A stretch of 22,541 nt of DNA from a virus: positions 1 to 22,541 of IMG/VR virus record IMGVR_UViG_3300009165_000041; one strand, written 5' to 3'. The notes beneath the pieces are model-generated. The model searched no databases and was not told the DNA's origin. It worked only from the letters and a program-made list of their open reading frames with translations. The translations under genes were made by a program, and so were the position numbers. Positions 2,105 through 19,976 of the stretch are shown piece after piece (positions within the stretch are counted from its first letter, which is position 1; every line of letters starts with the position of its first letter).

Positions 2105-2112
2105 TATTTATA
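2105..2112 (-). promoter_or_regulatory. T4-type late promoter TATAAATA
   Basis: The minus strand reads TATAAATA, an exact match to the T4 late-promoter octamer read by the gp55-type sigma factor. It overlaps the TAA stop of the 1023-residue gene (2108-2110) and sits 44 bases before the ATG at 2060. That leaves room for a leader of about 35-40 bases with the GGGAA ribosome site. It is the best promoter candidate in the window and would let the distal fiber gene be transcribed separately. Confidence 0.72.
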
Positions 2113-5100: not shown

Positions 5101-5179
5101 CCAAGTTTTCTGAGATTCGGTTCGTATCATCAAGCCACTGATAAACGTAGTCAACACTTTCGGTAAATGGTTTTGCCAT
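2108..5179 (-). CDS. Repetitive fiber-like virion structural protein
   Basis: This 1023-residue protein starts at ATG 5179, 7 bases after the stop of the coiled-coil gene. The N-terminal 90 residues (MAKPFTESVDYVYQWLDDTN, then ALNDLNDRKVKRSGD) are non-repetitive, are typical of marine phage fiber-type proteins, and are a plausible baseplate anchor. Residues about 105-607 hold six copies of a roughly 45-residue unit (GGDIxTxxTxFNLLNxTATT, then IGAxTGTTTI) and three copies of a unit starting with FIINDGTT(T/S)RF, VDS and NGNT. Such Thr/Asn/Gly repeats suit a triple-stranded beta shaft. Residues about 787-836 form an HGM..xWVYLDFTSG module also seen in other genes here. Residues about 925-1023 form a compact C-terminal domain (RSVEFQIQAVEGTKFW, LAIHDGTNVNWTEYG), probably the tip. 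No intramolecular chaperone or enzyme motif is visible. Fiber is the best call; a baseplate decoration protein is possible. Confidence 0.78.
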   Translation of the reverse strand: MAKPFTESVDYVYQWLDDTNRISENLGDPVNVYVSDGDYATHNAAYPSYLINTSTYTHDALEQSAVVRALNDLNDRKVKRSGDIITGNLRINQNLIVDQDLVVQGGDIITNQATFNLLNSTAATISAFGAGTSISIGSGTGLTTINHDLAVNGGDLTTTATTFNLLNTTATTVNAFGASTAVNIGAITGTTTINHSLLVSGGAGQTFIINDGTTTRFSVDSVNGNTLIAGTLGVTGDSTLTGDLAVNGGDITTTATTFNLLNTTATTVNAFGAGTAINIGAGSGTTTVNNDLAVNGGDIVTNQTSFNLLNTSVTTLSMAQAATSITIGALTGTTTIRHALTVQGGSGQSFIINDGTTSRFTVDSTNGNTVISGTLSVTGTSTLTGDTTITGDLAVNGGDITTTATTFNLLNATATTVNFAGASTGLTIGATTGTATIRNATTAITGTLRVDSATITTDSAITANVFANASVATLNIGTSATAVNIGAATGTTTVNNSLLVVGGSAQTFIINDGTTTRFSVDSINGNTLIAGTLGVTSAVTLSSTLGVTGDTTLTGDLAVNGGDITTTAATFNLVNATATTVNIAGAATSFSLGNVATGAQTVNMFTASTGASTYNLASGATLSGSTKTLNLATGGVAGSTTNINIGSTAGGTIMFNTPNMRFAGVTTNGVIHTTGGNGTVGILGTATANQVLLSGASAAPVWSTATLPATVAANSLLFAKTANQVEAMQFISSDSTIAYDYSISGKVNLRTTGSMPTSILVIGDLRVGSNKSGTYSQSGTSTISVNIVGHGMTSSNWVYLDFTSGTGNDGAYQVTVIDADNFTVTGSIQTTSGNVTAEIGGTGNITKVLSIGTDEYVPTTSLFVKAYDLTQITKLMEVQDSVGSTKFLIEPSGKTTINGDLYVQGNIVNTGSSGAVVTQGIVENPVTTTSTSETTILSIAAATYRSVEFQIQAVEGTKFWTSKILAIHDGTNVNWTEYGMAGIGTSPVASYAVDISAGNIVLKVTSASAASTVYKVVATAILV
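3359..4867 (-). repeat. Tandem/interspersed shaft repeats in the fiber-like gene
   Basis: The DNA is repetitive as well as the protein. A block of about 40 bases in the GGDITTTATTFNLL units recurs starting near 3469, 3961, 4408 and 4693 with only scattered changes. A second block encoding FIINDGTTTRF recurs near 3641, 4115 and 4543. Spacing is irregular (492, 447 and 285 bases) because two unit types are mixed. Such DNA can change copy number by homologous recombination, which would alter shaft length. Confidence 0.88.
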
Positions 5180-5406: not shown

Positions 5407-8400
5407 TTAAGCCAATGAAATAACTCTCAAGGCGCTGACTCTAGGTGTCAGTGCCGGGTTACTTGATCTAAACACAATCTTAACTTGTCCAACGTCATGT
5501 GCTGCAATACCAGTTTTCTCAAAGACGTATTCAGTCATATTATTAAAGTCCGCTGTTGTAACAAGCGTAGTCAATGAAGGAATCGGGTGCCAGCAAATCT
5601 CATGCAATGGCACTAGGCTGTTTGCAACCATATGGCGATGATAAACTTCAATCATTGTGCCTGTAGGAATGTTAGCATCCAATGTAATACGAACGCCTGT
5701 GCTTGCAACGGTTGTACGCATTGCTTGTGAGACATATGTTGAAAGTACACTTGTATTATATGGTGCAATCTCATCAGTATATCTAGTATGAAGAGTCAAC
5801 GAACAATTACTTGTACTTGTTCCTGATGTGAAGCTCACTGCACCATCAACGTAAATTCTATATGTCTCAGTTACTCCAACTGTCAACTTAGTTGGTCTAA
5901 GTACCTTGAAGGTAAATCCGTTGTTAGTGCCACTTGTAACAGTTACATACTTACCAACAGAAATCTTGTCAAAGTCGTCGAACAATGTAGCGTCAGTTGT
6001 CTCAAAATAGCTGTTGCACTCCTCAGGGTTAGCTTTCTGTGAGTGCAGGAAGCTGATTGTTTTATTTGTGCAAAGTACAACATCATCGAACGAAGCAAAG
6101 TTAATATTATCTAGAGAAGGGTCGTTGATTTTGTTGTTAACCAAGATAGCTGAACAGCGCTGCGAGTCGAGCACAGGAGACAAGTTTTCATCGTCAGATT
6201 GGAACGTAACAGTCATCTGCAATGATTTATCTTTAGCCAAACGCTTCGATTCGTTATCATGCGATGCTACAAGCATCATTGATGTAAAGTGGACGTTCTC
6301 ACGGTTAGGTGCTTCAAATTCACTAATGAAGTTGTATGCATTAACAGGATCACCCTTCATTGGCTTAATTGATAGAACTGCTGTTGTATCAGGGAAAGCT
6401 TGAACTTGGAAGTTCGGGAACAATGTTGAGTAAGCTATCTGGTATGTGCCTTCAACTTCTTCTCCACCAAACTGGGTTGTGAACGCTGCGTTCACGGCCG
6501 CACCTGCCGCACTTGTGATTTCGATTGTGTAGAAGTCATGCTCAACATTATCGACAATGTAGCTCTTAGAATCTGTTGCAAGATCACCCGCAAGATATTC
6601 TGTACCTAGTGCAGCAAACGGTCCTGTTGTTCCGACATAAGCACCACTCAGTGCAACAGTGTCACCTTCAACAAACCCATGATTCTCTTGGAACACACGA
6701 ACAATATTTGTTCCCTGAACAGCATAAAATGGGTTATCATTCAAGCGAACTGTAGGAATACGCTTGTTTACAAACTCAATCGAAGCTCTTTGTGAGATGT
6801 CGAACTTAGCCTTGTAAATCTTAAATGTAAGGTCTTCGTATTGTTCTGCTGTCCATGTGCTGTTGTTTTGCGACTTGAACAATGAACCTAGTGAAGGTTG
6901 TGAAGTGATCAGCTTGTTTGTACCAAGAATCTCTTCACCCATGCGAGCAATCCATACCTTGTAAACTGTTGAATCTGACAACAGCACGATACAATATTCA
7001 ACAACTGGCGCTAGATAGATAGGCTGTGCGAAAGTGAACACTGTAGGCACCATCTTGGTTGCGTCAACATTAACCTCAGATGGGTTCAGTGACTTACGAG
7101 CCAAAACATCAGGTCCTGGGTAGCCGTTTACAACACTACGAATCTCACATCTAACAGGTAGTGTAGGGTCTTTCGCAACAAAGTAAACTTCAGCTTGAGT
7201 GATGAATGCCCCTGATTGTTCACTGATAGAGAATGTTTGTGCTAGAGGGTCACCACGACCAGCGATGAACAATGTTTGGTTAATTGTTTCATTTTGTGTT
7301 ACATTCTGAGTAACAACATCACCTGCATTTCTAACATTCGTGATAGTTCTGTCTTTAACCTGCAATGTTCCACTTGCAATGTAATTACCAACTGCGGTTG
7401 TTGTAGCTAGCGCATCGTTGTTTGTGCTATCGTCAGTGAACTTGAATACTCTAGATCCTGTGTTGAACTTATGTGTAGCGTTGTTAGGAATGTAGAACGA
7501 TACATGAACAGCGCCCTGTGAGTTTGTAACTAAGCCAGGGTTGCGGATCTTACTAAAGCTGCAAGACGCATTACCTGACGTTGATTTGATGCTGTAACCT
7601 GTCAGGTTAGTAGGAACAGCGTTCCAGTCAAAGGTTGCGCCATTTTTTCTTCCGATGACTTTAACAACTTGCTCATCAATACCATCTTTTGTTTGTTTGA
7701 CAATATCAACAACAATAGCAGTTGCGCCTGTGTCAATGGTGCCATTAAACACCTTAACCACTTCACCACGATCAAAGAATACACCCTTTAGTTGTGCGAC
7801 AAGGGACTTACTTTTTGTCTCAACGTCTTTGGTTGAAAGTCTGCGAGCTTCATTGTCTTCATCATCAACCACACCCTCTTCGTAAAGGGCAAACTTACCG
7901 CTGATGCTACCACTAACAACTAGTTCATTTAGGCCATAGCAGTACTCAGATACATCAATGTCACTGAAGAATGGGACAACTTTTGTATTGGGGCGAAGAC
8001 CAGCCGCCTTAATAACAACAGGGCGAGTACGAATGGTAGGAATAATTGTTGTCTCAACAATTCTATCATCGATTGTTGTAGTCCACGACTCATTCAGGCG
8101 AGTTTCGATGCCTGTTCTGGATCTGTTTTGATTAATGTTAACTGTACCAACACCACCTTGCTCACCAAACGGCGCAACACCGATACCCAAGTGTCCTGTT
8201 AGGAACTGATTAGATGTTGGAATATTTCCAGCCTGCAACATTCCAGTAACACGACCACGGAAACCTTCACCATCTAACCAACGATTGCCCCATTGGCGTG
8301 TCCAGGCGTTATTTTGGTTCATGTTGAAGGTGATACCAGACCAGTTAGTCTGCCATGAGTTCCAACGTGTACCTAGTTGACCAGATGAGGCCAGCGCTGC

Positions 8401-11400
8401 TTGTACTGTGTTGAAGTTACCTTCCTTGGTTAGAGTAACTTCCATTCGGGTTTTTTCTTCCATCCATGTATCTTGTGAAGGATACAGTTGCACTTCACCG
8501 TTAAAGGTAACAACAGCGAATGGGTTAACGTATTCTGATCTCGACGCAAGAGGTTGCTCAACACAAGTTACGTTTGTGTAAGGCAATGACAGAATATCAC
8601 CTGTCATTGTGTAATGTGAAGTCAATCTTTGTGATTGTGTCAACGCTGATTCTTTCAAATCGATACTTGTTGATTCAGCGAAAGCACGACATTCACCTTG
8701 CTCAAAGTCAAGAGCACATAGGAAGTCTGGGTGAGCTGCATCACTGACAGCTTGACTTGCAAACGAATCAGTCAAAATACCTGCCTTGAAACGATCAAAT
8801 CCATTTGAGTCAGTCACTGTCTTACTGATAGTTTCACTTTCAAGTAGAGACAGCTGTGCATAGTACTCTAGGTTGTTGATACGGCGCTCGAGCTGACCAA
8901 TATCGGCCATAGTGTAACGCTTATGTTCTTTCTTGCTAATCTGAATATCATTTGAGTTTGCGCTAAATGATCCAGGCGCAAGTCTTGCCAAGCTGATAAT
9001 CATGCTGTTTTGCTTAGGGATAGGTTCCTTCAATGAATAACCTGGCTCACCCGCAACAACCTCTAGCTTGTTGTTACTATCGATTGTGATGATGTCTATT
9101 CTTGGTAGGTAATATGAGTAGTTGACCTTGAAGAAAGTATTAAGTGATGTTGGTTCAGTTACAGATGCACCATCAATAGTCAAGAATGACAGACCATCAT
9201 CTGAAATACGTGGACGGAAGTCAATCGAGTCACGAAGAATAGTATCGACCTTATCACGGGCAACGTCAACATATGAGTTAACTGTGAAGAAGTCACCAGC
9301 ACTATGGTTGAAGTATTCAAATACAATACGGACAGTGTTGTTCAGTTTTGGGCAGTCTTTCTTCTTAGACAGCTTACCCAAACCATAGAACATAGGTGTT
9401 TGACCGTTATCCAAAATAAACTGGTTTGTAATGTCGTTATAGCCTTCGGTAGCTGTTGCTGTCGCCCAGTCATCATAATCTGTGCCTGTTAGGTTACCAG
9501 CACCTCTTGCCTTCATGACTTTAACAACACGATACACGTCTGCTTCGTTCAGTTGCAGTACAGCCTTTTCAAGTGTCTTCTGGTTTGTGACATCCATGAT
9601 CTTGATGGCACGAGTTTTTGTTTTTTCACGGGCCGCTGTTGATGTTTTCTCAACTGTAGTTAGAACTTCGTGCGCCTCTGACGCAAGGCCTGAAATTGTC
9701 AGTGTCTTAGCATCAGGTGAGAGAGTCATATTAGGCGCTGCTAGAATGGCTCCTGAAGAGATAACCGATACCAAGTAGTTGCCTGTAGTGATAGGTGCAA
9801 ATGTTTCACCATCAACAGTCAGTGTAATTGTAATGGTTCCAGCTGTTGGGTTCAACAGGTTGAAGTGACGGCGTACAGTGTATGTTGTAGCGATAGTTGT
9901 GTCATCTTTACTACGGACGTTACGCACATACTCTTTGGTGAACGGGGTCAACAAGCTAGCTGATACTGAGAAAATTGAGCTGTAGACAGCATCAATCGTT
10001 TGAGACTCAAGTGTTGTGGCGAAGTTATATGGAACTGTCAATGAGCTGTCTGATGTAGGCACAACCCAGCTTGTCTTGACTGTCAAACCAGAACCAATAC
10101 GAATATACTGACCTGAAGTTACGTTGCTCAGGAATGAAGTTCCGATACCTGATACTGTCTTTTGACCTGATGTGATATTTACCAAACCAGGTAGACGAAC
10201 TAGTTCTTCAACAAGGTCGGCTTGGAAACCTGACGATCCTTGTCCAATAATAGACTTAACATGTAGACCCCATGTGTATTCAGGTTGTAGGTCAACGTCA
10301 AAAATCTGTAGACGATACTTAGCAGTTGCGGATCCTTGTGTTCCTTCTTGATAGTCCATTGAACGAACACGACATGTACCGATCTTAACAGGATCAGCAG
10401 TAGGAGCACCGATAGCAATGTTTTGTGAGCCGTTATAAGCTGAACCGCCGTTGATAACACGGATCTCTTGAATTTCACCAGTCAACGAAACAATGGCCTT
10501 AAGAATTGCGCCTGAACCACCACCACCTGTCACTGTTACTGTTGGAGGGTTGTTACGGTCATAACCATAACCCATGTCAGTAACAGTAATGGATGTAATG
10601 GTTCCAGTTTGAGTGTTTGATGCTGTTGCTTGTCTTTTGTTTGTGTCGAATGTTAGCAGTTCAGCACGAGTGTAGTAATACAAGTCAACTTGTTCGTATG
10701 TGCTAATGTTAGGCAAACCACGAAGGTTGGTCACCTCAGCATATGTACCAGCAGCCGCAGGTACAATTTCGTTCTCAACATGTTCGTATGTTAGAGCCTT
10801 TTCGCTGGTTAGTGTTTGATCAGCCTTTGTTTCAACTTCATAGCCACTAACATAACCTTTACCAGGCGCAATCTTATAAACAATCTTGCCTGCATTTTCA
10901 CGGTTAGTGAACAGCGAATCTGTTTCTTTTGGTCTGAAAATACCGTTGTTTGACAGGTTGGTTTGCATCTTGTTGAGCATAACCCAGTTAATGTTACCAT
11001 CGTTAACCTTATAACCTGTAGCCTCAGAAGGAGCTGAAGGACCCGCTGCACCATCATTCAGCGCTTCCCATGTTGCACCATTTGATTTTACAACGTCACC
11101 CTGCAAGTATGATACACCTGCTTTCCAATCACCACGATAGTTGTTTCTATAGTTGTTGGATGTAACAACAAAAGGTTTAACTTCATAATCACCCGACTCA
11201 TCATATGTACGACGAGCAAAAATCTTCTCGATTTCTGAGTACTCTGTTGCAGTTACTTCCTGAATGATTTGACCTTTTTTAACATGGATAAGGTCAATGA
11301 ACTTTTCCTCAAGAACATTTCCTTCATCATCAGTTGTTTCTAGGTCATCAAAGTTAAATGAGCGCTTAGATAGGATCAGTTCCAGCTTGTAACGGTTAGC

Positions 11401-12102
11401 ACCAGGAGCAGCATAGTTGCTGTAACCGAGTGCGTTATCATACAATGATTCATCTTCTACTGCTGTTACGATTGTCTCTTTGATTTCCAGACCAGCACGC
11501 CATGTAGGAGTCTTGCTGAATTTTTCCAGAGTAATTGTTTGCTTATCAACACGAACAAAGTATCCGTTGATGTAGTAAATACCTTCGTTAACTGTAACGA
11601 TTGATGCTGATGAAACTGCTTCTGATGAGACAAGTTTAACCTTAACGTCTGCATTAGTTGAGTCATACAGAACTTCACTGTTCTTGAACTGTTTAACTTC
11701 TTCTTCGGTTGTTGAAGAAGAAATGAACTTAACATATAGTAACGGTGCGTCTTTGTTGGTTGATAGGTCGTAGTGAACAACCAAGGCAGTCACGCCTGTT
11801 TCAGAGCCAACCAATGTTTGACCAACAAGGTTGTCTAGGATAAGATCAGCTGAAACGTCGTTGTATAGACCAACCAACTTCAATGAGTATACTGCTGAGT
11901 CGTAATAAACGTGTCCAGGAATAACCATCGAACCATTCTTAAAGACGTGATCAGCATGGCTCTTGATTTGATTTTGCAGGATAGATTGAATCTGGTTCAA
12001 CTCACGGGTTTGTACTGGGCGAGTTGGGACGAACAACATCTTATAGAAGTTCTTGTCGTCTGTGAAATCGTCAAAGTATGGAGCGACGTTAAAATTTTGC
12101 AT
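5407..12102 (-). CDS. Giant DUF4815-family virion/baseplate protein (possible gp9/gp10 functional counterpart)
   Basis: This 2231-residue protein starts at ATG 12102 (MQNFNVAPYFDDFTDDKNFY); AGGA lies 10 bases upstream. Its N-terminus (LFVPTRPVQTRELNQIQSIL, QNQIKSHADHVFKNGS) is the signature I associate with DUF4815, found in large structural proteins of marine T4-like phages. Residues about 322-378 are a CBM5/12-like module (DWKAGVSYLQGDVV). Residues about 500-566 hold one or two GxGY repeats. Residues about 1062-1092 (YTMADIGQLERRINNLEYY) form a short predicted coiled coil typical of these proteins. Residues 1247-1275 are Trp-rich. Residues 1801-1870 contain an ENHGFVEGDTVALSG module. The C-terminal part is beta-rich and unassigned. 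It follows gp8, where T4 carries 9, 10, 11 and 12, so a peripheral wedge or fiber-docking role is likely. The exact role is unproven. Confidence 0.82.
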   Translation of the reverse strand: MQNFNVAPYFDDFTDDKNFYKMLFVPTRPVQTRELNQIQSILQNQIKSHADHVFKNGSMVIPGHVYYDSAVYSLKLVGLYNDVSADLILDNLVGQTLVGSETGVTALVVHYDLSTNKDAPLLYVKFISSSTTEEEVKQFKNSEVLYDSTNADVKVKLVSSEAVSSASIVTVNEGIYYINGYFVRVDKQTITLEKFSKTPTWRAGLEIKETIVTAVEDESLYDNALGYSNYAAPGANRYKLELILSKRSFNFDDLETTDDEGNVLEEKFIDLIHVKKGQIIQEVTATEYSEIEKIFARRTYDESGDYEVKPFVVTSNNYRNNYRGDWKAGVSYLQGDVVKSNGATWEALNDGAAGPSAPSEATGYKVNDGNINWVMLNKMQTNLSNNGIFRPKETDSLFTNRENAGKIVYKIAPGKGYVSGYEVETKADQTLTSEKALTYEHVENEIVPAAAGTYAEVTNLRGLPNISTYEQVDLYYYTRAELLTFDTNKRQATASNTQTGTITSITVTDMGYGYDRNNPPTVTVTGGGGSGAILKAIVSLTGEIQEIRVINGGSAYNGSQNIAIGAPTADPVKIGTCRVRSMDYQEGTQGSATAKYRLQIFDVDLQPEYTWGLHVKSIIGQGSSGFQADLVEELVRLPGLVNITSGQKTVSGIGTSFLSNVTSGQYIRIGSGLTVKTSWVVPTSDSSLTVPYNFATTLESQTIDAVYSSIFSVSASLLTPFTKEYVRNVRSKDDTTIATTYTVRRHFNLLNPTAGTITITLTVDGETFAPITTGNYLVSVISSGAILAAPNMTLSPDAKTLTISGLASEAHEVLTTVEKTSTAAREKTKTRAIKIMDVTNQKTLEKAVLQLNEADVYRVVKVMKARGAGNLTGTDYDDWATATATEGYNDITNQFILDNGQTPMFYGLGKLSKKKDCPKLNNTVRIVFEYFNHSAGDFFTVNSYVDVARDKVDTILRDSIDFRPRISDDGLSFLTIDGASVTEPTSLNTFFKVNYSYYLPRIDIITIDSNNKLEVVAGEPGYSLKEPIPKQNSMIISLARLAPGSFSANSNDIQISKKEHKRYTMADIGQLERRINNLEYYAQLSLLESETISKTVTDSNGFDRFKAGILTDSFASQAVSDAAHPDFLCALDFEQGECRAFAESTSIDLKESALTQSQRLTSHYTMTGDILSLPYTNVTCVEQPLASRSEYVNPFAVVTFNGEVQLYPSQDTWMEEKTRMEVTLTKEGNFNTVQAALASSGQLGTRWNSWQTNWSGITFNMNQNNAWTRQWGNRWLDGEGFRGRVTGMLQAGNIPTSNQFLTGHLGIGVAPFGEQGGVGTVNINQNRSRTGIETRLNESWTTTIDDRIVETTIIPTIRTRPVVIKAAGLRPNTKVVPFFSDIDVSEYCYGLNELVVSGSISGKFALYEEGVVDDEDNEARRLSTKDVETKSKSLVAQLKGVFFDRGEVVKVFNGTIDTGATAIVVDIVKQTKDGIDEQVVKVIGRKNGATFDWNAVPTNLTGYSIKSTSGNASCSFSKIRNPGLVTNSQGAVHVSFYIPNNATHKFNTGSRVFKFTDDSTNNDALATTTAVGNYIASGTLQVKDRTITNVRNAGDVVTQNVTQNETINQTLFIAGRGDPLAQTFSISEQSGAFITQAEVYFVAKDPTLPVRCEIRSVVNGYPGPDVLARKSLNPSEVNVDATKMVPTVFTFAQPIYLAPVVEYCIVLLSDSTVYKVWIARMGEEILGTNKLITSQPSLGSLFKSQNNSTWTAEQYEDLTFKIYKAKFDISQRASIEFVNKRIPTVRLNDNPFYAVQGTNIVRVFQENHGFVEGDTVALSGAYVGTTGPFAALGTEYLAGDLATDSKSYIVDNVEHDFYTIEITSAAGAAVNAAFTTQFGGEEVEGTYQIAYSTLFPNFQVQAFPDTTAVLSIKPMKGDPVNAYNFISEFEAPNRENVHFTSMMLVASHDNESKRLAKDKSLQMTVTFQSDDENLSPVLDSQRCSAILVNNKINDPSLDNINFASFDDVVLCTNKTISFLHSQKANPEECNSYFETTDATLFDDFDKISVGKYVTVTSGTNNGFTFKVLRPTKLTVGVTETYRIYVDGAVSFTSGTSTSNCSLTLHTRYTDEIAPYNTSVLSTYVSQAMRTTVASTGVRITLDANIPTGTMIEVYHRHMVANSLVPLHEICWHPIPSLTTLVTTADFNNMTEYVFEKTGIAAHDVGQVKIVFRSSNPALTPRVSALRVISLA
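8278..8364 (-). other. Trp-rich segment of the DUF4815 protein
   Basis: Residues 1247-1275 contain six Trp (RWNSWQTNWSGI, then AWTRQWGNRWL) in 29 residues, while Trp is rare elsewhere in this protein. The cluster could be a packing core or an aromatic binding patch. Confidence 0.6.
10405..10605 (-). repeat. GxGY beta-repeat module in the DUF4815 protein
   Basis: Residues about 500-566 read TITSITVTDMGYGYDRNNPP, then TVTVTGGGGSGAILKAIV, then GEIQEIRVINGGSAYNG. This is the same unit pattern (G.GY..P.V.V.G.G.GA...A.V, then a strand and G.GY) that fills much of the gp7-position protein and is inserted in gp8. Confidence 0.75.
10969..11139 (-). other. CBM5/12-like module in the DUF4815 protein
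   Basis: Residues about 322-378 contain DWKAGVSYLQGDVV, then WEALNDGAAGPSAPS, then VNDGNINWVML. The W..G..Y..GD.V...G..W.A...G....P layout, closing with DG.I.W..L, resembles carbohydrate-binding module family 5/12-type modules. It aligns by eye with two segments of the 2123-residue protein. Confidence 0.55.
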
Positions 12103-12112
12103 TCTTTAGGTA

Positions 12113-12116
12113 TCCT
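12113..12116 (-). promoter_or_regulatory. Weak ribosome binding site AGGA
   Basis: AGGA lies 10 bases before the ATG at 12102, longer than the usual spacing. No better purine run is closer, so this is the likely site for the giant DUF4815 gene. Confidence 0.4.
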
Positions 12117-12132
12117 GTTATTGCAACTGTTT

Positions 12133-12140
12133 TATTTATG
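12133..12140 (-). promoter_or_regulatory. Late-promoter-like CATAAATA before the DUF4815 gene
   Basis: The minus strand reads CATAAATA immediately after the TAA stop of gp8 (12141-12143) and 30 bases before the ATG at 12102. It differs from the T4 octamer only at the first base, as allowed by the NATAAATA form described for cyanophages. The predicted transcript would start about 6-7 bases downstream, leaving a short leader with the AGGA site. Confidence 0.6.
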
Positions 12141-13568
12141 TTAGAATTCAAAGGTAATGATGATGACTTCAGTTTGGTCAGCCGATCTTTGAATTGCACG
12201 TCTGTTTTCATAATAAATGACCTGACCAGTATACTTTTCAACCTCAGGGCCACCGTTTGTTTTATCAAGCACTGCAGTGATTGTTCCTGTTCCAAGAGCA
12301 CTTGTTGATACAGTCTTACCTACGTTGAATGATGAACTTGCACCAGCACCAACTTGCTCCGATTCTGTTCTAATGTAGCGAACAACCAGATCAGGACCAC
12401 TAACATATGTGTCGATGATTCTTCCCTTAGCGCCATCTTGTTCTGTGATGATGCTATCAGGAGAGAACGAACCTGAGTATGGGTTCAACTTGATTGCATA
12501 GCAAGACGAGGCTGTTGGTAGTGTCAACAAAGATGTACCACCGTTTTCGATTGGGTTTGCAACCAAACCAATTTGACGGTAATCGTTAGTAACAGGGAAG
12601 TCACCAGCGCCTTCGGCCTCAACAAACGCCGAGTAGGCGATAACAAAATAACCATTCAAGTCACGAACAGGATCAGCACCAAGACCATCTTTAGGTGTGA
12701 TAATCGCTGTAGCTGTTGCAGTTGTTCCTGCCGAAGGTGCGGCGATAACAATGTTCGCCCATGTATAACCTGTACCATAGTTGGTCATATTGACACCAAC
12801 CACTTTACCTGTACCGTCGACAACTGCGACAGCTGTTGCGTTTGCGCCATCACCTTCAACTGTTACGGAAGGTGGAGTACCTTGCACATAGCCTGTACCT
12901 TGACCTGTAACCAGCACGTTGAAGATAGCGCCGGGGTATGTTGTTTTAGCTGTTTGCTGTGCGTTCCACTGAACTTCATATGGGTCACCTGTCAACGGAG
13001 CAGTTATAAGCGTTCTAACAGGGTGATAATATGTGCTTTGGAACTTGTTAACCGCTGTTGAGTCTGTTGTACCAATGTACTTCCAAACATAACCATCTGC
13101 GCCTGTTACAGGAAGGAACTGTGCGCCACCTGTACCGAGTGTTTGAGGAGAAACTGTTGATTGACCGTTTGTCTTCAAGCAAACATAAACACTGTTATTT
13201 GCTGTTACAACGTAATAGTTTGCGTCACTTAGTGACAGTGGGTAAGTTGATGATCCTGTGTCAATATCAACACCAGGAACTGTACCATCGTAGTCGTGAC
13301 GGTACATGTCGTAATACTTACCAGCTGTCCAAGTTCTACGGTAGATGCCGTGTGACACATCATTGGAAGTGATTCGCTTCATAGCGATCATGGAGTCCCA
13401 AATCTTGTTGTCTTGCTTTACGTTATCAGCAGGGTTAGGCGGAACTAGGTCATCTGGCCAGGATTCGGGGCGTCCGATAAACATGTAGTAATAGTTAGAT
13501 GCACTTAGTGCGTCAATGAATTTTTTAGCATTGAACACTCTGAATTTGCTTGTGATAATTGCGGCCAT
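12141..13568 (-). CDS. gp8: Baseplate wedge protein gp8, with inserted beta-repeats
   Basis: This 475-residue protein starts at ATG 13568 with a well-placed GGAGT. The match to T4 gp8 runs through several blocks in order: IITSKFRVFNAKKF near the start, a PESWP...PPNPAD segment at about 34-48, VYVCLK at about 127-132, DGYVWKYI at about 158-165, NDYRQIGLVANPIENGG at about 328-344, and the C-terminal YTGQVIYYENRRAIQRSADQ followed by ITFEF. T4 gp8 (334 residues) ends with a very similar YMENR...DQTE...FTF. In T4, gp8 forms a dimer in the wedge with gp10, gp7, gp6 and gp53. The extra length comes mainly from residues about 213-298, two GxGY units, and from about 350-435, a less regular Ser/Gly-rich beta stretch. 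Both lie between conserved gp8 blocks, so they look like surface insertions. Confidence 0.9.
   Translation of the reverse strand: MAAIITSKFRVFNAKKFIDALSASNYYYMFIGRPESWPDDLVPPNPADNVKQDNKIWDSMIAMKRITSNDVSHGIYRRTWTAGKYYDMYRHDYDGTVPGVDIDTGSSTYPLSLSDANYYVVTANNSVYVCLKTNGQSTVSPQTLGTGGAQFLPVTGADGYVWKYIGTTDSTAVNKFQSTYYHPVRTLITAPLTGDPYEVQWNAQQTAKTTYPGAIFNVLVTGQGTGYVQGTPPSVTVEGDGANATAVAVVDGTGKVVGVNMTNYGTGYTWANIVIAAPSAGTTATATAIITPKDGLGADPVRDLNGYFVIAYSAFVEAEGAGDFPVTNDYRQIGLVANPIENGGTSLLTLPTASSCYAIKLNPYSGSFSPDSIITEQDGAKGRIIDTYVSGPDLVVRYIRTESEQVGAGASSSFNVGKTVSTSALGTGTITAVLDKTNGGPEVEKYTGQVIYYENRRAIQRSADQTEVIIITFEF
12675..12932 (-). repeat. GxGY beta-repeat pair inserted in gp8
   Basis: Residues about 213-298 read VLVTGQGTGYVQGTPP, then SVTVEGDGANATAVAVV, then GKVVGVNMTNYGTGYTW, then ANIVIAAPSAGTTATATAII. 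These are two consecutive units of the module repeated in the neighbouring 2123-residue protein. T4 gp8 has no counterpart here in my recollection of its sequence. Confidence 0.78.
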
Positions 13569-13575
13569 TAGATAG

Positions 13576-13580
13576 ACTCC
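13576..13580 (-). promoter_or_regulatory. Ribosome binding site GGAGT for gp8
   Basis: GGAGT lies 7 bases before ATG 13568, the best Shine-Dalgarno match in the window, and fixes the gp8 start. Confidence 0.7.
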
Positions 13581-13593
13581 GGATGAGATTTCT

Positions 13594-13601
13594 TATTTAT
13601 C
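13594..13601 (-). promoter_or_regulatory. Late-promoter-like GATAAATA before gp8
   Basis: The minus strand reads GATAAATA 25 bases before the gp8 ATG and 3 bases after the TAA stop of the preceding giant gene. A start point about 6-7 bases downstream would leave the GGAGT site inside the leader. It fits NATAAATA, not the strict T4 octamer. Confidence 0.6.
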
Positions 13602-13604
13602 AAG

Positions 13605-16600
13605 TTAAATAAACTTCTTGGTTCCAAACGATCTTTCAACTGTTACGTTGCCACCTGTACCACTACCTAGGTATTCAACACTGAAAGAGTCATCATTAAT
13701 TTTGGTTATTACGAACGGTTGGCTAATGTTTAGACCACCTGAGGTAAACGATAGAAAGACAATCTGACCATCGAATAATCCATGAGCCACCTCACTAACT
13801 GTGACTAAATCAGCTGCCCATGTATATGTTGCTGATGTGAATATTCCACTGATAGGTGATAACACTTCATACTTAACCCACATATCTGTTGCTGTTGGTT
13901 GATGCATTAAGTCACGGTGAATCATCATTGAGTGGTTGTTAACCGTGAATCGAGAACAATCATCTCCAAACGAATCAGTCATCCATGAACCAACTGAGCG
14001 AGTCATTTTTGTTATAGCCAGATTGGCTAATGACAGTGTATAGTTAGCACCAACACCAACACCTGAGATCGTTAGTGTGTCAGCAACATTATAGTTGGCG
14101 CCACCGTACACTACATTGATAGCAACAACTTCACCGTTGGATACAATTGCTTCTAGAATAGCACCACTACCTGTTGAGGTATTAATCGACACTGTAGTTG
14201 TAAGGGAACTATATCCTGATCCTACTGCAACTCTACTTGTCTTAGCGATGGTATTAGTTAAAGTGTCATCAACAAAAGTTAACGTACCAGGATTAGTCAT
14301 GTCCATAAACTTGCATAGTTGAGTGTTAACACGACCACGGCGAAGTTTGTTTAGGAGTGATGAGAGATCAACATTACCACTAGCAAGCTCTTTGATGATA
14401 TAAGGAGTGATATCTGATACTCTTAGCCATAGTAGTTCGCTAATATATCCAACATATGCCCCAAGATACAAGCTTGCGTACAATGAGAACAACAACAAGT
14501 ATGTAACGTCACTAATTTGTTCACCTGTGTCTGTTGTAGGCATGTCAACAGTTGCACTACCGTAACCTTCGATAACAATATCACCAAATAACTTGAACCC
14601 TGATGGGTGAACCAATGACTTCAATGTTTGCTCATAATCGCTCAATGAAAGACCAGTTGATACCTTGTACGCATAGTCATGGTATCTATAGCTGTCATGT
14701 AGAACAATGTCGGTGTTGCTCAGATAACCTGACGACTTACTAAACACTGCTTTATACTTACCAACAGCAGCGTTACCAACTACGCCTGAAGCACGGTTCT
14801 GCCACAACACTCTTGTCTTAAGTCTTGTTCTCTCACCAACAATAACATTACCGATACCGATATAGTTACTGATTTCGTTTACTAAGTATGAATCCTTCTC
14901 AGACAGAATCAGGAAGTCATTTTTGCCTGCTGACAGTGTCAGAATATAGATGTCAGTTGTTCCACCAAGAACAACCAAGTTTCTGTCCAAGTCAACTTCT
15001 TTCACATACGCATGAGGGCCTTTAGTAAAGTCATTGTCAGGATAGTTATAACCGTCAACATAAACTAGTTCACCAACCATGAATGGATATGTCATATCAC
15101 TGACAATCAGGTTCAATGGGAACGAAACAAGTGGAACTTCCTTATAGTTGAATCCGAAGTCAGTTGTATTGAATCCTTTAACTGCGCCGATTGTATTCGA
15201 TACTGCAATAACAGCTGACGCACCATCGTTGTTTTCAATTACTGCAAGTGGAAGGGTAGTATAACCATACCCTTTATCACGAATAGTGATCTCCGAGATC
15301 GCACCAATAGCTGATACATCATCAACAATAACTGTAGGAAATTGGGTGTATTTTGTACCTTGTGTATCGACGGATGCATCTGTTACACTTCCGAAACCTG
15401 CGATGTTGGCTGATAGAGCTGCTGCGGTGCCGTCTCCAATTACTGAAAGGAAGGTGTAGTTGTAACCTGTTCCAGCGTTTGTAATTTCAACACTCTTAAT
15501 AGGACGATCAGCGAATGCCTGGATGACAGCATTTCTTCCTACGTTTGTAGCGACATATGCATGGGCCCAAGTGTATCCTGATCCAGGAGTGATTGTAATT
15601 GAATCGATAGTTCCGTCTGATGCTAGAACTGTTGTGCCACCTGCACCTGCGCCATCACCTACAACATAGATGGTAGGGGCTGTACTATACACTCCGTTTT
15701 TAGTTATAGTGAACGAATCAACAGCACCGGCGAGCAAATTGGCCTCGACTTCAGCATCACCTGGGTTGTTATACACGACAATGGACGGAGTAACGTATAA
15801 CGCTCCTGCTTCGACAATATCATATGAACCAATAACTCCTGATACTTTTTGAGCCAAGAGATCTGAGTCCATGTTTGTGTTTGCATGAACTTGAACTGTA
15901 CCCATAACTCCCTTAGGACCTAGGTACAACCAATCAACAGCGCCATCTGATACAGTACCAGTAGTATGTGTGGGCGGAGTTGCTCCTGCTGTACCACCTG
16001 CTACTGCTTGATATTGGTAATCACCGTACCATACTTCTTCTCCGGTATTATATGTGTCACCCGAGTTCCATTCGTTGATAACAGTGATTGTACTATTGAT
16101 GTATCCAGTTCCACCATTAGTGACTGTTGCTGATACAATTGTATCTGACTGTAGAGGGTCTGTCTTAATTGTCGCAGTTGCACCAGCACCATCCATGTTA
16201 ATGAATTCGATTGTGCTATTGTTAGGGTAACCTGTACCACCATTAACAATGTACACTGAGGTAATCTTGCCATTAACATAGTTAGCTTCCAGGATCGCAT
16301 CTTCACCCAGCCCGGCGACGCAATGAACACCAGCACTTCTTTCGCACTGAATGTAATCACCAGCACCAAATTGAACTGGGTAGCTATCTTGTAAGTAATA
16401 ATGAATAACAGGGTTGGTTGTTGTTCCTTCAACTTTGACAACCACCCCACGCTTGATTGATCTTAGGGCGCTGACACCAACAAAGATAATATCGCCTGCG
16501 AGGAATGTTCCTACACCATTGCGACCAATGAACTTCTTAACCTTTGCATCGATCTCTTTTAGGTTCAGCTTAACTTTAGCTGTCGCATTATCTTCTTCGT

Positions 16601-19600
16601 ACACTAATGCCTTAGGTGCAGTGAATGTTTCACCACCATCGATAATGTCTAAGCGAGTGATACCTGTCTCAACAATGGGAGTTGCTGCTGCGTTCGAACC
16701 ATCACCATCGATAACAATTTGAGTTCCGTAGTGATATCCTGCTCCACCTGAAAGATCGAATCCTGTCAGTTGTCTTGTAGTTACGTTAACTGTAGCATTT
16801 GTTACAGAACCAGCTAGGGGAGGGGTGCCACCATTGATTGTTATAGTGGGCGGCACCACGTAGCCGAAACCTGGATCGAGAATCTCTAGAACTTCAATCT
16901 CACCAGAATCTTTATTAATGGTTGGTGCCAGCTTAGCTAGCTTACCTGACACAATAGCGATCTCAGTAACAGCGCCGTTAACTACTCTTGCAATACCATG
17001 AGCGCCTGTACCAGCACCTGTAATAACAACGTCTGCATATGTGTAGTTCTTTCCAATGCTAGTCATTGTAACAGACATAACTACGCCGTCGTTACGCACA
17101 TTAGCTACTGCTGCTGCTCCAGTACCATCACCAACAATCGAAACAAAGGTGCCACCTGAAACATAACCGCCGCCACCCGCAACTAATGATGGGTTAGTAG
17201 GTGCGCTAACAGTAACCGTTAGAGGAGTAATTTCAGTTGGATCCCAATATCCTTCGCCACTTGCATCAACATTGATGTTCTTGATAACACCATTAGGTGA
17301 TGTTTGAATGCTGACTTCAGCGTCCACACCTAGTACGTTTATTGTTACTGAGGCAGTTGTGTAACCTGACCCTCTGTTGGTCATGCTAACTCTTGTGATC
17401 ACACCATCAGTGATGGTTGGAGTAGCTGTTGCACTTGCTCCATCACCGGTAATTGTTAGAGTGACACCTGATTGATAGCCTTCACCTGAACTCAGAAGAC
17501 GAATAGCACGAATCACACCATCAGCAGTAACTATCGATAGCTGTGCTCCTGAACCAGTTTTGCTTGTGACAAGAACCAAGTCACTATTGGTGTAACCCTC
17601 ACCACAATCAACGATGGTAACACCTGTTATAACACCTGCTGAAATAACTGGTCTTAGTACTGCGCCGTTACCGTACTTGCTGATAACTTGAATAGTGGTG
17701 TCTTCTCCATACAATGTACCACCATTAACAATAGTGACTGAGGCAACGGCGTCTTGAACAATCAATGGCTCGAGAACTGCACCAGTTCCCTTACCTTCAG
17801 TAACAGAAACAATATAACCACCAAAGCTTAATGTCACACCGGTGTCGTCTATTGTTGCATTGTTTGATACAGTGAAAGAGGTGTTGCTGTCAACGGAAAC
17901 AACGTAAGTGTCGTCAGGCACACCAGTGCCGACAACCAAAGCGTCTGCCTTAACAATAGTGCTAGAAAGAAGTTCACCTGCAGGATATTGAATAACTGCG
18001 GAGTTGTTAGTTGTGGTAAATCCTATCAATGACTCGGCTACTGTATATCCACGTCCAGAATTATCAATTAATATGTTTTTGAGACGATATTCAGCATCTA
18101 CGACAGCCGATTCGTTTACTTTGGTTGTACCAAACAAGCGAGTAGGAATGTTGTAGGAAATAATATCGCCATGAAGTTCGTCCAGATCACCACGACGGTA
18201 GATAGATGCTGTAGCAATCTTACCACCCATCTGCAATGAGCCAACAAAGCCCGAACCAGTTTGACATTCAAGTCTAAAGTAGATTGTTGTACCAGCAGCC
18301 ACACCTTTGAATATAGTTGCACCGAGAATAGTATCGTTCTTAAATGTTAGAGAATCAATACCCAACTCATCAGTAACAGAAGGAACGTAGTCGACGTTCA
18401 GGTTAACTGTTTCAATAGGCTGAGTGAAACCAGCATCAAGGAAGAATCGTGCAACTGGACATTGAGTGTAGTTGATTCCTTTATCTGTTGTAGCAATTGA
18501 ACCAACGTATGTTGATCCTACTGAACCACCAGCTTGAGTGACAAGAGAACCATATGCGCCAGCACCACCAACTTGCATAACAGGCTCACCGATCCAAGCA
18601 ACGTCTGGAACGGGAATGTAGGTAATAGCACCATCATGGATGGTTGCAGTAACAGGATAGTAGTCTGTGCCATCGTCGATAAACATCACTTGGGCTCTTG
18701 TATATGTACCACCGTATTCGATAGTTACAGTAGCTGGCCCAGTTGTAATGGTGTCAACTTGTAGAACAGGATTTACGTTATCACCAGGCAAGACAAGTTC
18801 AATCAAGTCACCTGCTTTGTAGTAGTCACCTACACTTCTAAATGTGAATGAGTCGAGTTCTAGAACAGGTAAGAGGTTAGCATCGATACCGTCAATAGCT
18901 GTTACTTCAGCCAATGCACCTGTACCATATCCATCAACCGATAGGAAGTTAATGTTGTCACCAACCTGATGACCGTAACCACGCTTAGCTATAATTGTGT
19001 TTGTCACACCACCCGGAGAAACTTCATCAACAAGAATTTGTCCGTTGATACCAGATCCGCCTGTTAGTGTTAATTCTTGGCCAGGTTTGTATAGAGAACC
19101 TGGACTCTCGATGCTCACATCACCCAGAATATTATCGATCTGAACAATAACGCTTTCGCCTGTCTCACGGAACTTACCTGTGATTTTACCACCCAGAATG
19201 AATTCACCAAAGATAGTGTCTTGTCTTAGTGTACATGTGTAGTAATCGCTACTGATAAGTTGCCATGTAACATCATTATCTACAATGGTTGTGCCTAATG
19301 ATGTTGGAGCATCAGTGTCAGTTGTTCCGCTGTTTTGTGCTTCATACTCTCTGTTACCAATGTTAAGGCGATCACCTCGAGTAACCGAAATAGACGCAGC
19401 CCACAAAGGTAGATCAGGGCTCATCCATGTTACCTTCTGCACTCTATCAACGAATGCAGCTGCAATAGGTGATTGCTGAACCAATGATGATCCGATCAAC
19501 TGTAGAAGATCAACTTCCTGTCCTGGAAGGTTCTTAACTACAATGATTGTTTTTGACTCATACTTGTTGTCTGACGCACGGAAAACATAATCAGCCATGA

Positions 19601-19976
19601 CCTCAGTGTCCACATTCTGATCATAGATCGCTTGCATAGTGTAGCGATATGAATCTAATGTTCCTTTTACACTAACAAGCTCTTTGATGTGCTTAATCAA
19701 AGTGTTTGCATCAACACGGTCTAATTCATTTTGAGGTAGTGATGGTAGAACTTGTAGCTTGATGTAGTTTGAAAATACTTCTGTAGCAAGGTCAACGTCT
19801 TTTTGCTCGATAGCTGCACGAAGGAAACCAATAGGTGACCAAACAGAACCTGTACTATCTGTAGGCTGTTCTAGAAACTCATAATATGATTCAAGTAGTT
19901 TTACAAATACAGGGTTATCACTACGAATAAACTCAGGTACTTGAGATTTGATATAGCTCGATACTGATGGTTTCAT
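13605..19976 (-). CDS. Giant repeat-rich baseplate wedge-type protein in the gp7 position
   Basis: This 2123-residue protein starts at ATG 19976 (MKPSVSSYIKSQVPEFIRSD), 3 bases after the gp6 stop. Residues 1-130 form a probably helical head with VPEFIRSDNPVFVKLLESYY, a motif I recall from large structural proteins of marine T4-like phages. The rest includes a CBM5/12-like module (about 189-242), about 21 GxGY beta-repeats (mostly 640-1110, 1220-1300, 1385-1615 and 1915-1985) and a second CBM5/12-like module (about 1301-1356). A conserved non-repeat block spans about 1700-1810 (LHDSYRYHDYAYKVSTGLSL, LVHPSGFKLFGDI), followed by a hydrophobic stretch at 1825-1851. The protein ends with an HGLFDGQIVFLSFTSGG module near 2065. 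It lies between gp6 and gp8, exactly where T4 has gp7 (1032 residues), but I see no direct gp7 sequence match. Wedge membership is inferred from position and neighbours. Confidence 0.75.
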   Translation of the reverse strand: MKPSVSSYIKSQVPEFIRSDNPVFVKLLESYYEFLEQPTDSTGSVWSPIGFLRAAIEQKDVDLATEVFSNYIKLQVLPSLPQNELDRVDANTLIKHIKELVSVKGTLDSYRYTMQAIYDQNVDTEVMADYVFRASDNKYESKTIIVVKNLPGQEVDLLQLIGSSLVQQSPIAAAFVDRVQKVTWMSPDLPLWAASISVTRGDRLNIGNREYEAQNSGTTDTDAPTSLGTTIVDNDVTWQLISSDYYTCTLRQDTIFGEFILGGKITGKFRETGESVIVQIDNILGDVSIESPGSLYKPGQELTLTGGSGINGQILVDEVSPGGVTNTIIAKRGYGHQVGDNINFLSVDGYGTGALAEVTAIDGIDANLLPVLELDSFTFRSVGDYYKAGDLIELVLPGDNVNPVLQVDTITTGPATVTIEYGGTYTRAQVMFIDDGTDYYPVTATIHDGAITYIPVPDVAWIGEPVMQVGGAGAYGSLVTQAGGSVGSTYVGSIATTDKGINYTQCPVARFFLDAGFTQPIETVNLNVDYVPSVTDELGIDSLTFKNDTILGATIFKGVAAGTTIYFRLECQTGSGFVGSLQMGGKIATASIYRRGDLDELHGDIISYNIPTRLFGTTKVNESAVVDAEYRLKNILIDNSGRGYTVAESLIGFTTTNNSAVIQYPAGELLSSTIVKADALVVGTGVPDDTYVVSVDSNTSFTVSNNATIDDTGVTLSFGGYIVSVTEGKGTGAVLEPLIVQDAVASVTIVNGGTLYGEDTTIQVISKYGNGAVLRPVISAGVITGVTIVDCGEGYTNSDLVLVTSKTGSGAQLSIVTADGVIRAIRLLSSGEGYQSGVTLTITGDGASATATPTITDGVITRVSMTNRGSGYTTASVTINVLGVDAEVSIQTSPNGVIKNINVDASGEGYWDPTEITPLTVTVSAPTNPSLVAGGGGYVSGGTFVSIVGDGTGAAAVANVRNDGVVMSVTMTSIGKNYTYADVVITGAGTGAHGIARVVNGAVTEIAIVSGKLAKLAPTINKDSGEIEVLEILDPGFGYVVPPTITINGGTPPLAGSVTNATVNVTTRQLTGFDLSGGAGYHYGTQIVIDGDGSNAAATPIVETGITRLDIIDGGETFTAPKALVYEEDNATAKVKLNLKEIDAKVKKFIGRNGVGTFLAGDIIFVGVSALRSIKRGVVVKVEGTTTNPVIHYYLQDSYPVQFGAGDYIQCERSAGVHCVAGLGEDAILEANYVNGKITSVYIVNGGTGYPNNSTIEFINMDGAGATATIKTDPLQSDTIVSATVTNGGTGYINSTITVINEWNSGDTYNTGEEVWYGDYQYQAVAGGTAGATPPTHTTGTVSDGAVDWLYLGPKGVMGTVQVHANTNMDSDLLAQKVSGVIGSYDIVEAGALYVTPSIVVYNNPGDAEVEANLLAGAVDSFTITKNGVYSTAPTIYVVGDGAGAGGTTVLASDGTIDSITITPGSGYTWAHAYVATNVGRNAVIQAFADRPIKSVEITNAGTGYNYTFLSVIGDGTAAALSANIAGFGSVTDASVDTQGTKYTQFPTVIVDDVSAIGAISEITIRDKGYGYTTLPLAVIENNDGASAVIAVSNTIGAVKGFNTTDFGFNYKEVPLVSFPLNLIVSDMTYPFMVGELVYVDGYNYPDNDFTKGPHAYVKEVDLDRNLVVLGGTTDIYILTLSAGKNDFLILSEKDSYLVNEISNYIGIGNVIVGERTRLKTRVLWQNRASGVVGNAAVGKYKAVFSKSSGYLSNTDIVLHDSYRYHDYAYKVSTGLSLSDYEQTLKSLVHPSGFKLFGDIVIEGYGSATVDMPTTDTGEQISDVTYLLLFSLYASLYLGAYVGYISELLWLRVSDITPYIIKELASGNVDLSSLLNKLRRGRVNTQLCKFMDMTNPGTLTFVDDTLTNTIAKTSRVAVGSGYSSLTTTVSINTSTGSGAILEAIVSNGEVVAINVVYGGANYNVADTLTISGVGVGANYTLSLANLAITKMTRSVGSWMTDSFGDDCSRFTVNNHSMMIHRDLMHQPTATDMWVKYEVLSPISGIFTSATYTWAADLVTVSEVAHGLFDGQIVFLSFTSGGLNISQPFVITKINDDSFSVEYLGSGTGGNVTVERSFGTKKFI
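14022..14234 (-). repeat. C-terminal GxGY repeat pair in the gp7-position protein
   Basis: Residues about 1915-1985 read SRVAVGSGYSSLTTTV, then GSGAILEAIVSNGEVV, then AINVVYGGANYNVADTLTIS. This pair is separated from the main arrays by the conserved VHPSGFKLFG block. Confidence 0.72.
14424..14504 (-). other. Strongly hydrophobic segment in the gp7-position protein
   Basis: Residues about 1825-1851 (TYLLLFSLYASLYLGAYVGY, then ISELLWL) contain almost no charge over about 25 residues, close to a membrane-segment composition. In a virion protein this may instead be a buried helix or oligomer core. Confidence 0.55.
15132..15824 (-). repeat. GxGY beta-repeat array II in the gp7-position protein
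   Basis: Residues about 1385-1615 carry roughly seven units with turn motifs GALY, GVYS, GSGYT, GTGYN, GTKYT, GYGYT and GFNYK. They alternate with VxxxGDGxxA strands and spacers of about 35-40 residues. Confidence 0.8.
15909..16076 (-). other. CBM5/12-like module (second copy) in the gp7-position protein
   Basis: Residues about 1301-1356 contain EWNSGDTYNTGEEVWYGDYQ, then YQAVAGGTAGATPPTHTTG, then VSDGAVDWLYL. The layout matches the copy in the DUF4815 protein: W..G..Y..G..V, aromatic and A, G..G..P, then SDG.(I/V).W..L. Confidence 0.58.
16077..18059 (-). repeat. GxGY beta-repeat array I in the gp7-position protein
   Basis: Residues about 640-1110 and 1220-1300 carry about twelve units. Typical turns are GRGYT, GEGYT, GEGYQ, GSGYT, GEGYW, GGGYV, GFGYV and GGTGY. 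Each is followed by a VxIxGDGxGAxAxAxV strand pair and then a DGVIxxVxMTNxG strand. A non-repeat block (about 1111-1219) separates the last two units from the rest. Confidence 0.85.
19248..19409 (-). other. CBM5/12-like module (first copy) in the gp7-position protein
   Basis: Residues about 190-243 contain LWAASISVTRGDRLNIGNRE, then YEAQNSGTTDTDAPTS, then IVDNDVTWQLI. It is more diverged than the other two copies but keeps the W...V..GD....R.Y.A..SG....P...D..V.W layout. Confidence 0.48.

What the first reader, a model, noticed from the sequence alone, without database searches (positions are those of the whole stretch)
10405..19124. One GxGY beta-repeat module is shared by three adjacent baseplate genes
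The unit GxGY..P.V.I.G.G.GA.A.A.V..G.I..V.VTN.G occurs about 21 times in the gp7-position protein (including a diverged start near residues 285-360), twice in gp8 and once or twice in the DUF4815 protein. The unit is visible directly; the sharing suggests intragenic expansion plus transfer between neighbouring genes, or matching interfaces in the assembled wedge. I know of no established function for it.
Basis: partly seen in the sequence, partly recalled or inferred. Interest (0 to 1): 0.62.

Follow-up and report, generated by a model that had tools for sequence, protein, structure and literature searches.

The report
Shared insert domain in phage tail proteins
A small beta-strand building block, about 40 amino acids long, is repeated around 20 times in one tail protein of this virus of bacteria and is also found in two neighbouring tail proteins; it proves to be a common, unnamed plug-in domain used all over the virus particles of this large group, most likely to extend the tail tip and hold fibres or touch the host surface.

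Summary
Observation confirmed. Profiles built independently from the gp7 units, the gp8 units and the DUF4815 unit match each other (hhalign 91-98%, E 1e-7 to 1e-14), against 0.2-5% for fibre and reversed controls. The window has 17 strong to about 22 plausible units in gp7, two in gp8, and one full plus one degenerate unit in DUF4815.

The interpretation needs changing. The gp8 pair is ancestral: all 95 gp8 relatives have units, 78 exactly two. The DUF4815 copy is a clean ~80-residue insertion missing from 54 of 55 relatives, and other phages carry units at other DUF4815 sites. The gp7 array interrupts a gp7 core homologous to the C-terminal part of T4 gp7; minimal gp7s of ~290-430 aa lack it. 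Window gp7 units are no more alike than units of unrelated proteins, so there is no sign of recent tandem expansion or of transfer between these neighbours. Units also occur in gp14 neck, a proximal tail sheath stabiliser and giant gp7-position proteins.

Best reading: a widespread, Pfam-unnamed virion insert domain of two three-stranded units, probably the same kind as the Ig-like D3* insert of the solved tailspike Dpo31. It likely extends the wedge and provides docking or adhesion surface.

The parts
13605..19976 (-). gp7-position protein, 2123 aa: gp7 homologue carrying the module array
   Evidence: PHROG baseplate wedge families; minimal-gp7 profile matches residues 4-146 and 1734-1806 and T4 gp7
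19539..19967 (-). gp7 N core (residues 4-146)
   Evidence: minimal-gp7 profile, 63 bits; the same profile matches T4 gp7 645-758
18885..19118 (-). two diverged GxGY units of gp7 (residues 287-364), at the place where the gp7s of relatives carry theirs
17280..17756 (-). four contiguous GxGY units (gp7 residues 741-899)
   Evidence: 31-43 bits each; middle pair modelled at pLDDT 91-97
16965..17204 (-). two GxGY units (gp7 residues 925-1004)
   Evidence: 26 and 32 bits
16656..16907 (-). two GxGY units (gp7 residues 1024-1107)
   Evidence: 31 and 33 bits
16059..16277 (-). two GxGY units (gp7 residues 1234-1306)
   Evidence: 44 and 12 bits
15180..15845 (-). four to six GxGY units (gp7 residues 1378-1599)
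   Evidence: 6-36 bits
14559..14777 (-). gp7 C core (residues 1734-1806)
   Evidence: minimal-gp7 profile, 43 bits
14025..14261 (-). two GxGY units after the C core (gp7 residues 1906-1984)
   Evidence: 27 and 24 bits
15900..16082 (-). carbohydrate-binding-like module in the gp7 array (residues 1299-1359)
   Evidence: matches cyanophage tailspike receptor-binding domain 7eea, E 1.3e-8
19242..19409 (-). second, diverged copy of that module (gp7 residues 190-245)
   Evidence: alignment z 7.1 to the first copy, 9.6 to the DUF4815 copy
12141..13568 (-). gp8, 475 aa
   Evidence: PF09215 48.7 bits, phrog_438 E 1.8e-114; structure match to T4 gp8
12696..12932 (-). conserved GxGY unit pair in gp8 (residues 213-291)
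   Evidence: present in all gp8 relatives examined; model pLDDT about 90-97, three strands per unit
5407..12102 (-). DUF4815 (VrlC) protein, 2231 aa
   Evidence: PF16075 229 bits; homologue of solved phi812 DUF4815 protein 9euf, E 3.5e-44
10378..10647 (-). lineage-specific insert in DUF4815 (residues 486-575) holding one full and one degenerate GxGY unit
   Evidence: 54 of 55 relatives lack it, with the strands VDLY and IGTARVR joined by a short loop
10969..11130 (-). carbohydrate-binding-like module in DUF4815 (residues 325-378)
   Evidence: alignment z 10.2 to gp7 1294-1362; at least half present in only 4 of 55 relatives

Best explanation
The GxGY unit is a three-stranded beta unit of 38-45 residues. 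It usually occurs as tandem pairs that make one small beta domain, and that domain is plugged into surface loops of many virion proteins of cyanophage-like T4-type phages. In gp8 the pair is an old, fixed part of the protein. In gp7 a variable array of such domains, mixed with carbohydrate-binding-like modules, is spliced between the two halves of the conserved gp7 core. In DUF4815 the module was inserted into a loop in this lineage and at other sites in other lineages. The array most likely works as a non-enzymatic, surface-exposed extension of the baseplate wedge that adds bulk and docking or adhesion surface for tail fibres and the host surface, much like other inserted Ig-like domains of phages. 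Shown: homology, positions, conservation, insertion. Predicted with confidence: strand content in gp8. Inferred: Ig-like fold, surface exposure, docking or adhesion role.
For: Cross-gene homology with controls. gp8 pair universal and modelled as six strands at high confidence. Empty-site comparison in DUF4815, with several different insertion positions in relatives. Minimal gp7s of 291-429 aa without units, in the three smallest of which the N core runs almost directly into the C core. gp7 core homologous to T4 gp7. Unit profile matches Dpo31 residues 445-504 in the PDB, inside the protruding Ig-like insert D3* (434-536) that the authors compare with sugar-binding domains (PMC13317679); the pair profile scores 12.7 bits there against at most 8.4 in 2000 shuffles. 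Units match 21 PHROG families; all with an assigned name are virion proteins. Carbohydrate-binding-like modules lie in the same insert. Precedent: an inserted wedge domain of cyanophage A-1(L) holds the long tail fibre (PMC10966104).
Against: The Dpo31 match is weak as a database hit (E 0.024), and with the single-unit profile one of 2000 shuffles scores higher (12.3 against 11.3 bits). The array model is poor outside one unit pair (mean pLDDT 67, pTM 0.36) and the deep alignment coverage sits on that same pair. Its structure search gave only weak hits, many of them Ig-type folds. No coordinates were available to assign topology. The pairing of units is suggestive only: alternation of the two gp8-like unit types has p 0.12 in the window and is absent in marine arrays, and many detected units elsewhere stand alone. 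No binding data exist.
Confidence: 0.55

Rival explanations
1. The units are glycan-binding domains: the array multiplies weak sugar contacts and helps set host range.
For: Dpo31 D3* resembles sugar-binding domains; carbohydrate-binding-like modules sit in the same insert and in DUF4815; units also match tail fibre PHROGs; all five amino-acid differences in gp7 from a 99.7% identical strain lie in the variable region, none in the cores.
Against: Units also occur in neck and sheath-stabilising proteins far from the host surface; the gp8 pair is highly conserved; five differences against seven silent ones are too few to show selection.
Confidence: 0.25
2. The units are homotypic assembly surfaces: gp7, gp8 and DUF4815 units pack against one another in the wedge.
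For: In T4, gp7 and gp8 are in contact and form the platform for gp6 (PMC3004832); all three proteins here carry the unit.
Against: DUF4815 relatives mostly lack it and minimal gp7s lack it altogether, although their wedges must still assemble.
Confidence: 0.12
3. The gp7 array is a passive spacer that enlarges the baseplate, replacing the first 640 residues of T4 gp7 that this protein lacks.
For: The profile match to T4 gp7 starts at T4 residue 645 while it starts at residue 4 here; gp7 length rises with unit number.
Against: The spacer would have to be inserted in the middle of the core rather than at the N-terminus; functions other than spacing are not excluded.
Confidence: 0.2
4. The similarity is convergence of glycine-rich beta hairpins, not shared ancestry.
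For: Units share mostly Gly, Tyr and alternating hydrophobic positions, and variable columns are only about 15% identical.
Against: Profile-profile E 1e-7 to 1e-14 with clean controls; the same order of three strands predicted in gp8 and gp7.
Confidence: 0.05

Closest known systems
Dpo31 tailspike insert D3* (Cobetia phage Carin-1; PDB 28lx, 28mg, 8ck1; PMC13317679)
   Same: Two GxGY motifs 45 residues apart in a protruding inserted beta domain of a virion protein; the profile match lies inside D3*.
   Different: Single copy in a podovirus tailspike; similarity weak (E 0.024).
gp8 of cyanophage-type T4-like phages (phrog_438, PF09215)
   Same: Same unit pair at the same place in all relatives examined.
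   Different: T4 gp8 matches only the flanking parts and shows no unit.
T4 gp7 (PDB 5hx2, 5iv5)
   Same: N core and C core homologous (E 6.4e-6).
   Different: The window protein lacks the first ~640 T4 residues and has a ~1590-residue insert between the cores.
Tail sheath gp18-like domain I (PF22639)
   Same: Several gp7 units of relatives give partial weak matches to its start; in T4 this domain is also an inserted, outward-protruding domain (PMC3004832).
   Different: All matches are below the curated cut-off and cover only about positions 5-48 of 93.
Insertion domain of the A-1(L) cyanophage wedge protein gp31 (PMC10966104)
   Same: Inserted domain in a wedge protein; one copy holds the long tail fibre.
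   Different: No sequence comparison was made here; analogy of role only.
Phage Ig-like accessory domains
   Same: Modular beta domains scattered over structural proteins, absent in close relatives (general knowledge, not tested here).
   Different: No Pfam Ig-like family matched the units.

Membership tests
Phage T4 gp8 (PF09215) | profile match above the curated cut-off | tested here: met
   48.7 bits against 25; Foldseek to 1n7z E 4.8e-13
T4 gp7 | sequence homology to T4 gp7 | tested here: met
   minimal-gp7 profile vs T4 gp7 645-758 and a weak second stretch at about 860-907, whole-sequence E 6.4e-6; the window matches that profile at 63 and 43 bits
T4 gp7 | full-length T4 architecture including the first ~640 residues | tested here: not met
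   the match begins at window residue 4 and T4 residue 645
DUF4815 (PF16075) | profile match above the curated cut-off | tested here: met
   229 bits against 30
Gp18 domain I (PF22639) | profile match above the curated cut-off over the domain | tested here: not met
   best 20.3 bits against 27, partial
Dpo31 D3* type Ig-like insert | sequence similarity over the two-unit domain | tested here: inconclusive
   PDB search E 0.024; 12.7 bits against a shuffle maximum of 8.4 with the pair profile
Dpo31 D3* type Ig-like insert | Ig-like topology of the unit pair | not testable with these tools
   strands predicted but no coordinates; array model search gave only weak Ig-type hits
Carbohydrate-binding module 5/12 (PF02839), for the second shared module | profile match above the curated cut-off | tested here: not met
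   21.5 bits against 26.2 for DUF4815 326-348

The most novel reading that the evidence does not exclude
The gp7 array is an evolvable adhesive arm: a baseplate core protein that gains and loses interchangeable Ig-like and carbohydrate-binding-like modules, doing in these phages what separate pin and short-fibre proteins do in T4.
Probability: 0.2. Interest if true: 0.68.

Novelty: new variant of a known kind. Interest (0 to 1): 0.45.

Why it matters
A domain present in every gp8 relative examined of one of the most abundant groups of aquatic phages has no Pfam or NCBIfam entry. Giving it a profile would help annotate many 'virion structural proteins' (21 PHROG families match units) and links them to a solved structure. 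It also shows that gp7 is present in pelagiphages and their kin, where a published analysis states that it is absent and replaced by VrlC (PMC7029224): the minimal-gp7 profile, which matches T4 gp7, finds both cores in the HTVC008M protein between gp6 and gp8.

Tried and rejected
DNA tandem repeats: none. Pfam and NCBIfam for the unit: no family above cut-off. PDB hit to BURRH: rejected as a sum of many sub-threshold repeat hits on a different repeat type. Idea of a closed six-stranded barrel of the elongation-factor kind, from the gp8 Foldseek hit to eIF2-gamma domain III: dropped because the aligned region could not be assigned to the module and may be the C-terminal gp8 domain. Alternation of two unit types as proof of pairing: not significant in the window (p 0.12), significant in other gp7s (p 0.0015, but related sequences), absent in marine arrays. 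Membership in Gp18 domain I: sub-threshold. Array AlphaFold model: only one unit pair reliable.

Full report
WHAT THE WINDOW IS. The window is a 22.5 kb virus record of IMG/VR. On the minus strand it carries gp25, gp6, a 2123-aa gp7-position protein, gp8, a 2231-aa DUF4815 (VrlC) protein and two fibre-like proteins. The order gp25-gp6-gp7-gp8-VrlC is the same in Pelagibacter phage HTVC008M. The nearest cultured relative by DUF4815 is Synechococcus phage BUCT-ZZ01 at 34% identity. A second contig, L004, is 99.7% identical over 13.2 kb.

A profile from 11 gp7 units alone finds both gp8 units and the DUF4815 unit, while nothing above 2.2 bits appears in the other window proteins. With a refined profile and 1615 ORFs there are 628 hits at 8 bits or more, against 0 in shuffled and 2 in reversed sequences. 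As a stricter test, profiles were built separately from gp8 units of other phages, from window gp7 units and from the DUF4815 stretch. They match each other at 91-98% probability (E 1e-7 to 1e-14); fibre repeats and reversed sequences give 0.2-5%. The consensus unit is SDGKITGVTITNGGTGYTSGPTVTITGGDGSGATATAVVPNGGVVT.

THE SHARING IS MUCH WIDER. All 95 gp8 proteins fetched contain units, 78 of them exactly two, at a conserved position with invariant glycines. This holds for cyanophages, pelagiphages, a methylotroph phage and Caulobacter phage Cr30. A search of whole records places further units in gp14 neck, a proximal tail sheath stabilisation protein, another gp7-annotated protein and single proteins of 4000-7124 aa. 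Units match 21 PHROG families; those with an assigned name are baseplate, neck, fibre, head decoration or other virion proteins. T4 gp8 matches only the flanking parts.

gp7. The smallest gp7-position proteins (291-429 aa) have no units. Their profile matches T4 gp7 residues 645-758 and, weakly, a second stretch at about 860-907 (whole-sequence E 6.4e-6), so this is a gp7 homologue, contrary to a published statement that gp7 is absent and replaced by VrlC in pelagi- and cyanomyophages (PMC7029224). In the smallest ones the two cores are almost adjacent; in the window they lie at residues 4-146 and 1734-1806. The insert between them holds most of the array plus two copies of a carbohydrate-binding-like module, one of which matches a cyanophage tailspike receptor-binding domain (E 1.3e-8). 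Relatives of 570-1016 aa carry one to three units near the position of the window's first, diverged units.

DUF4815. The window insert at residues 486-575 is missing in 54 of 55 relatives, where the same two strands are joined by a short loop; the remaining one (L015) has a large insert at that place. Other phages carry units at other places in this protein, aligned to about window residues 646, 1680, 1795 and 1828. These hits are weaker (7-18 bits) and neighbouring sites could be one, so 'at least three further sites' is the safe reading.

EVOLUTION. The units in window gp7 are no more similar to each other than to units of other proteins and phages, and no DNA tandem repeat remains. The array is therefore old or was assembled piecewise. 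The nearest relatives of the DUF4815 unit are in gp7-position proteins of other phages, not in its neighbours. The five gp7 amino-acid differences from L004 all lie in the variable region between the cores, beside seven silent ones; this is too little to infer selection.

STRUCTURE. The gp8 model is confident (pLDDT 92) and gives three strands per unit. The array model is reliable only for one unit pair, with the same strand order, and the alignment depth is concentrated there. The unit profile finds Dpo31 residues 445-504 (E 0.024). That lies within D3*, an inserted, protruding domain described as Ig-like and distantly similar to sugar-binding domains (PMC13317679). The match beats all of 2000 shuffles with the pair profile, though not quite all with the single-unit profile. 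This is the best structural lead, not proof. In T4, gp7 and gp8 lie at the baseplate periphery (PMC3004832), so modules inserted there could reach the surface.

MECHANISM. Most likely the modules are inserted beta domains that extend the wedge and offer docking or adhesion surface. Precedents are the Dpo31 D3* domain, T4 gp18 domain I, which protrudes and contacts retracted fibres, and the A-1(L) wedge insertion domain that holds the long fibre (PMC10966104). Homology, position, conservation and insertion are shown; fold, exposure and role are inferred.

Noticed in passing
15900-16082, 19242-19409 and 10969-11130 (minus strand): A second module, carbohydrate-binding-like (W...Y..GD.V...Y.A...GT.G...PT..TG.V.DG.V.W), occurs twice in gp7 and once in DUF4815; in DUF4815 at least half of it is aligned in only 4 of 55 relatives.
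   Followed up: partly
13605-19976: gp7 is present in this phage and in pelagiphages, although a 2020 paper reports it absent; the homologous part is the C-terminal third of T4 gp7.
   Followed up: yes
5407-12102: The DUF4815 protein is homologous (E 3.5e-44) to the solved DUF4815 baseplate protein of Staphylococcus phage phi812 (9euf), and gp8 resembles its neighbour in that phage (9fko, 9euj); there is also a weak hit (E 0.08) to Anabaena All3316 (7b5h).
   Followed up: no
L015:13306-23907, L011:1-9011: Marine cyanophages carry single genes of 3500-7100 codons around the gp7 position that contain many units.
   Followed up: partly
L004: In a 99.7% identical strain, gp7 differs at five residues (703, 1051, 1053, 1372, 1386), all between the gp7 cores; gp8 and the compared part of DUF4815 have no amino-acid difference.
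   Followed up: partly
2108-5179: The fibre-like protein has its own long repeat (TFNLLN.TATTVN.FGA.TA.NIGA.TGTTTI), unrelated to the GxGY unit (hhalign 0.2%).
   Followed up: no
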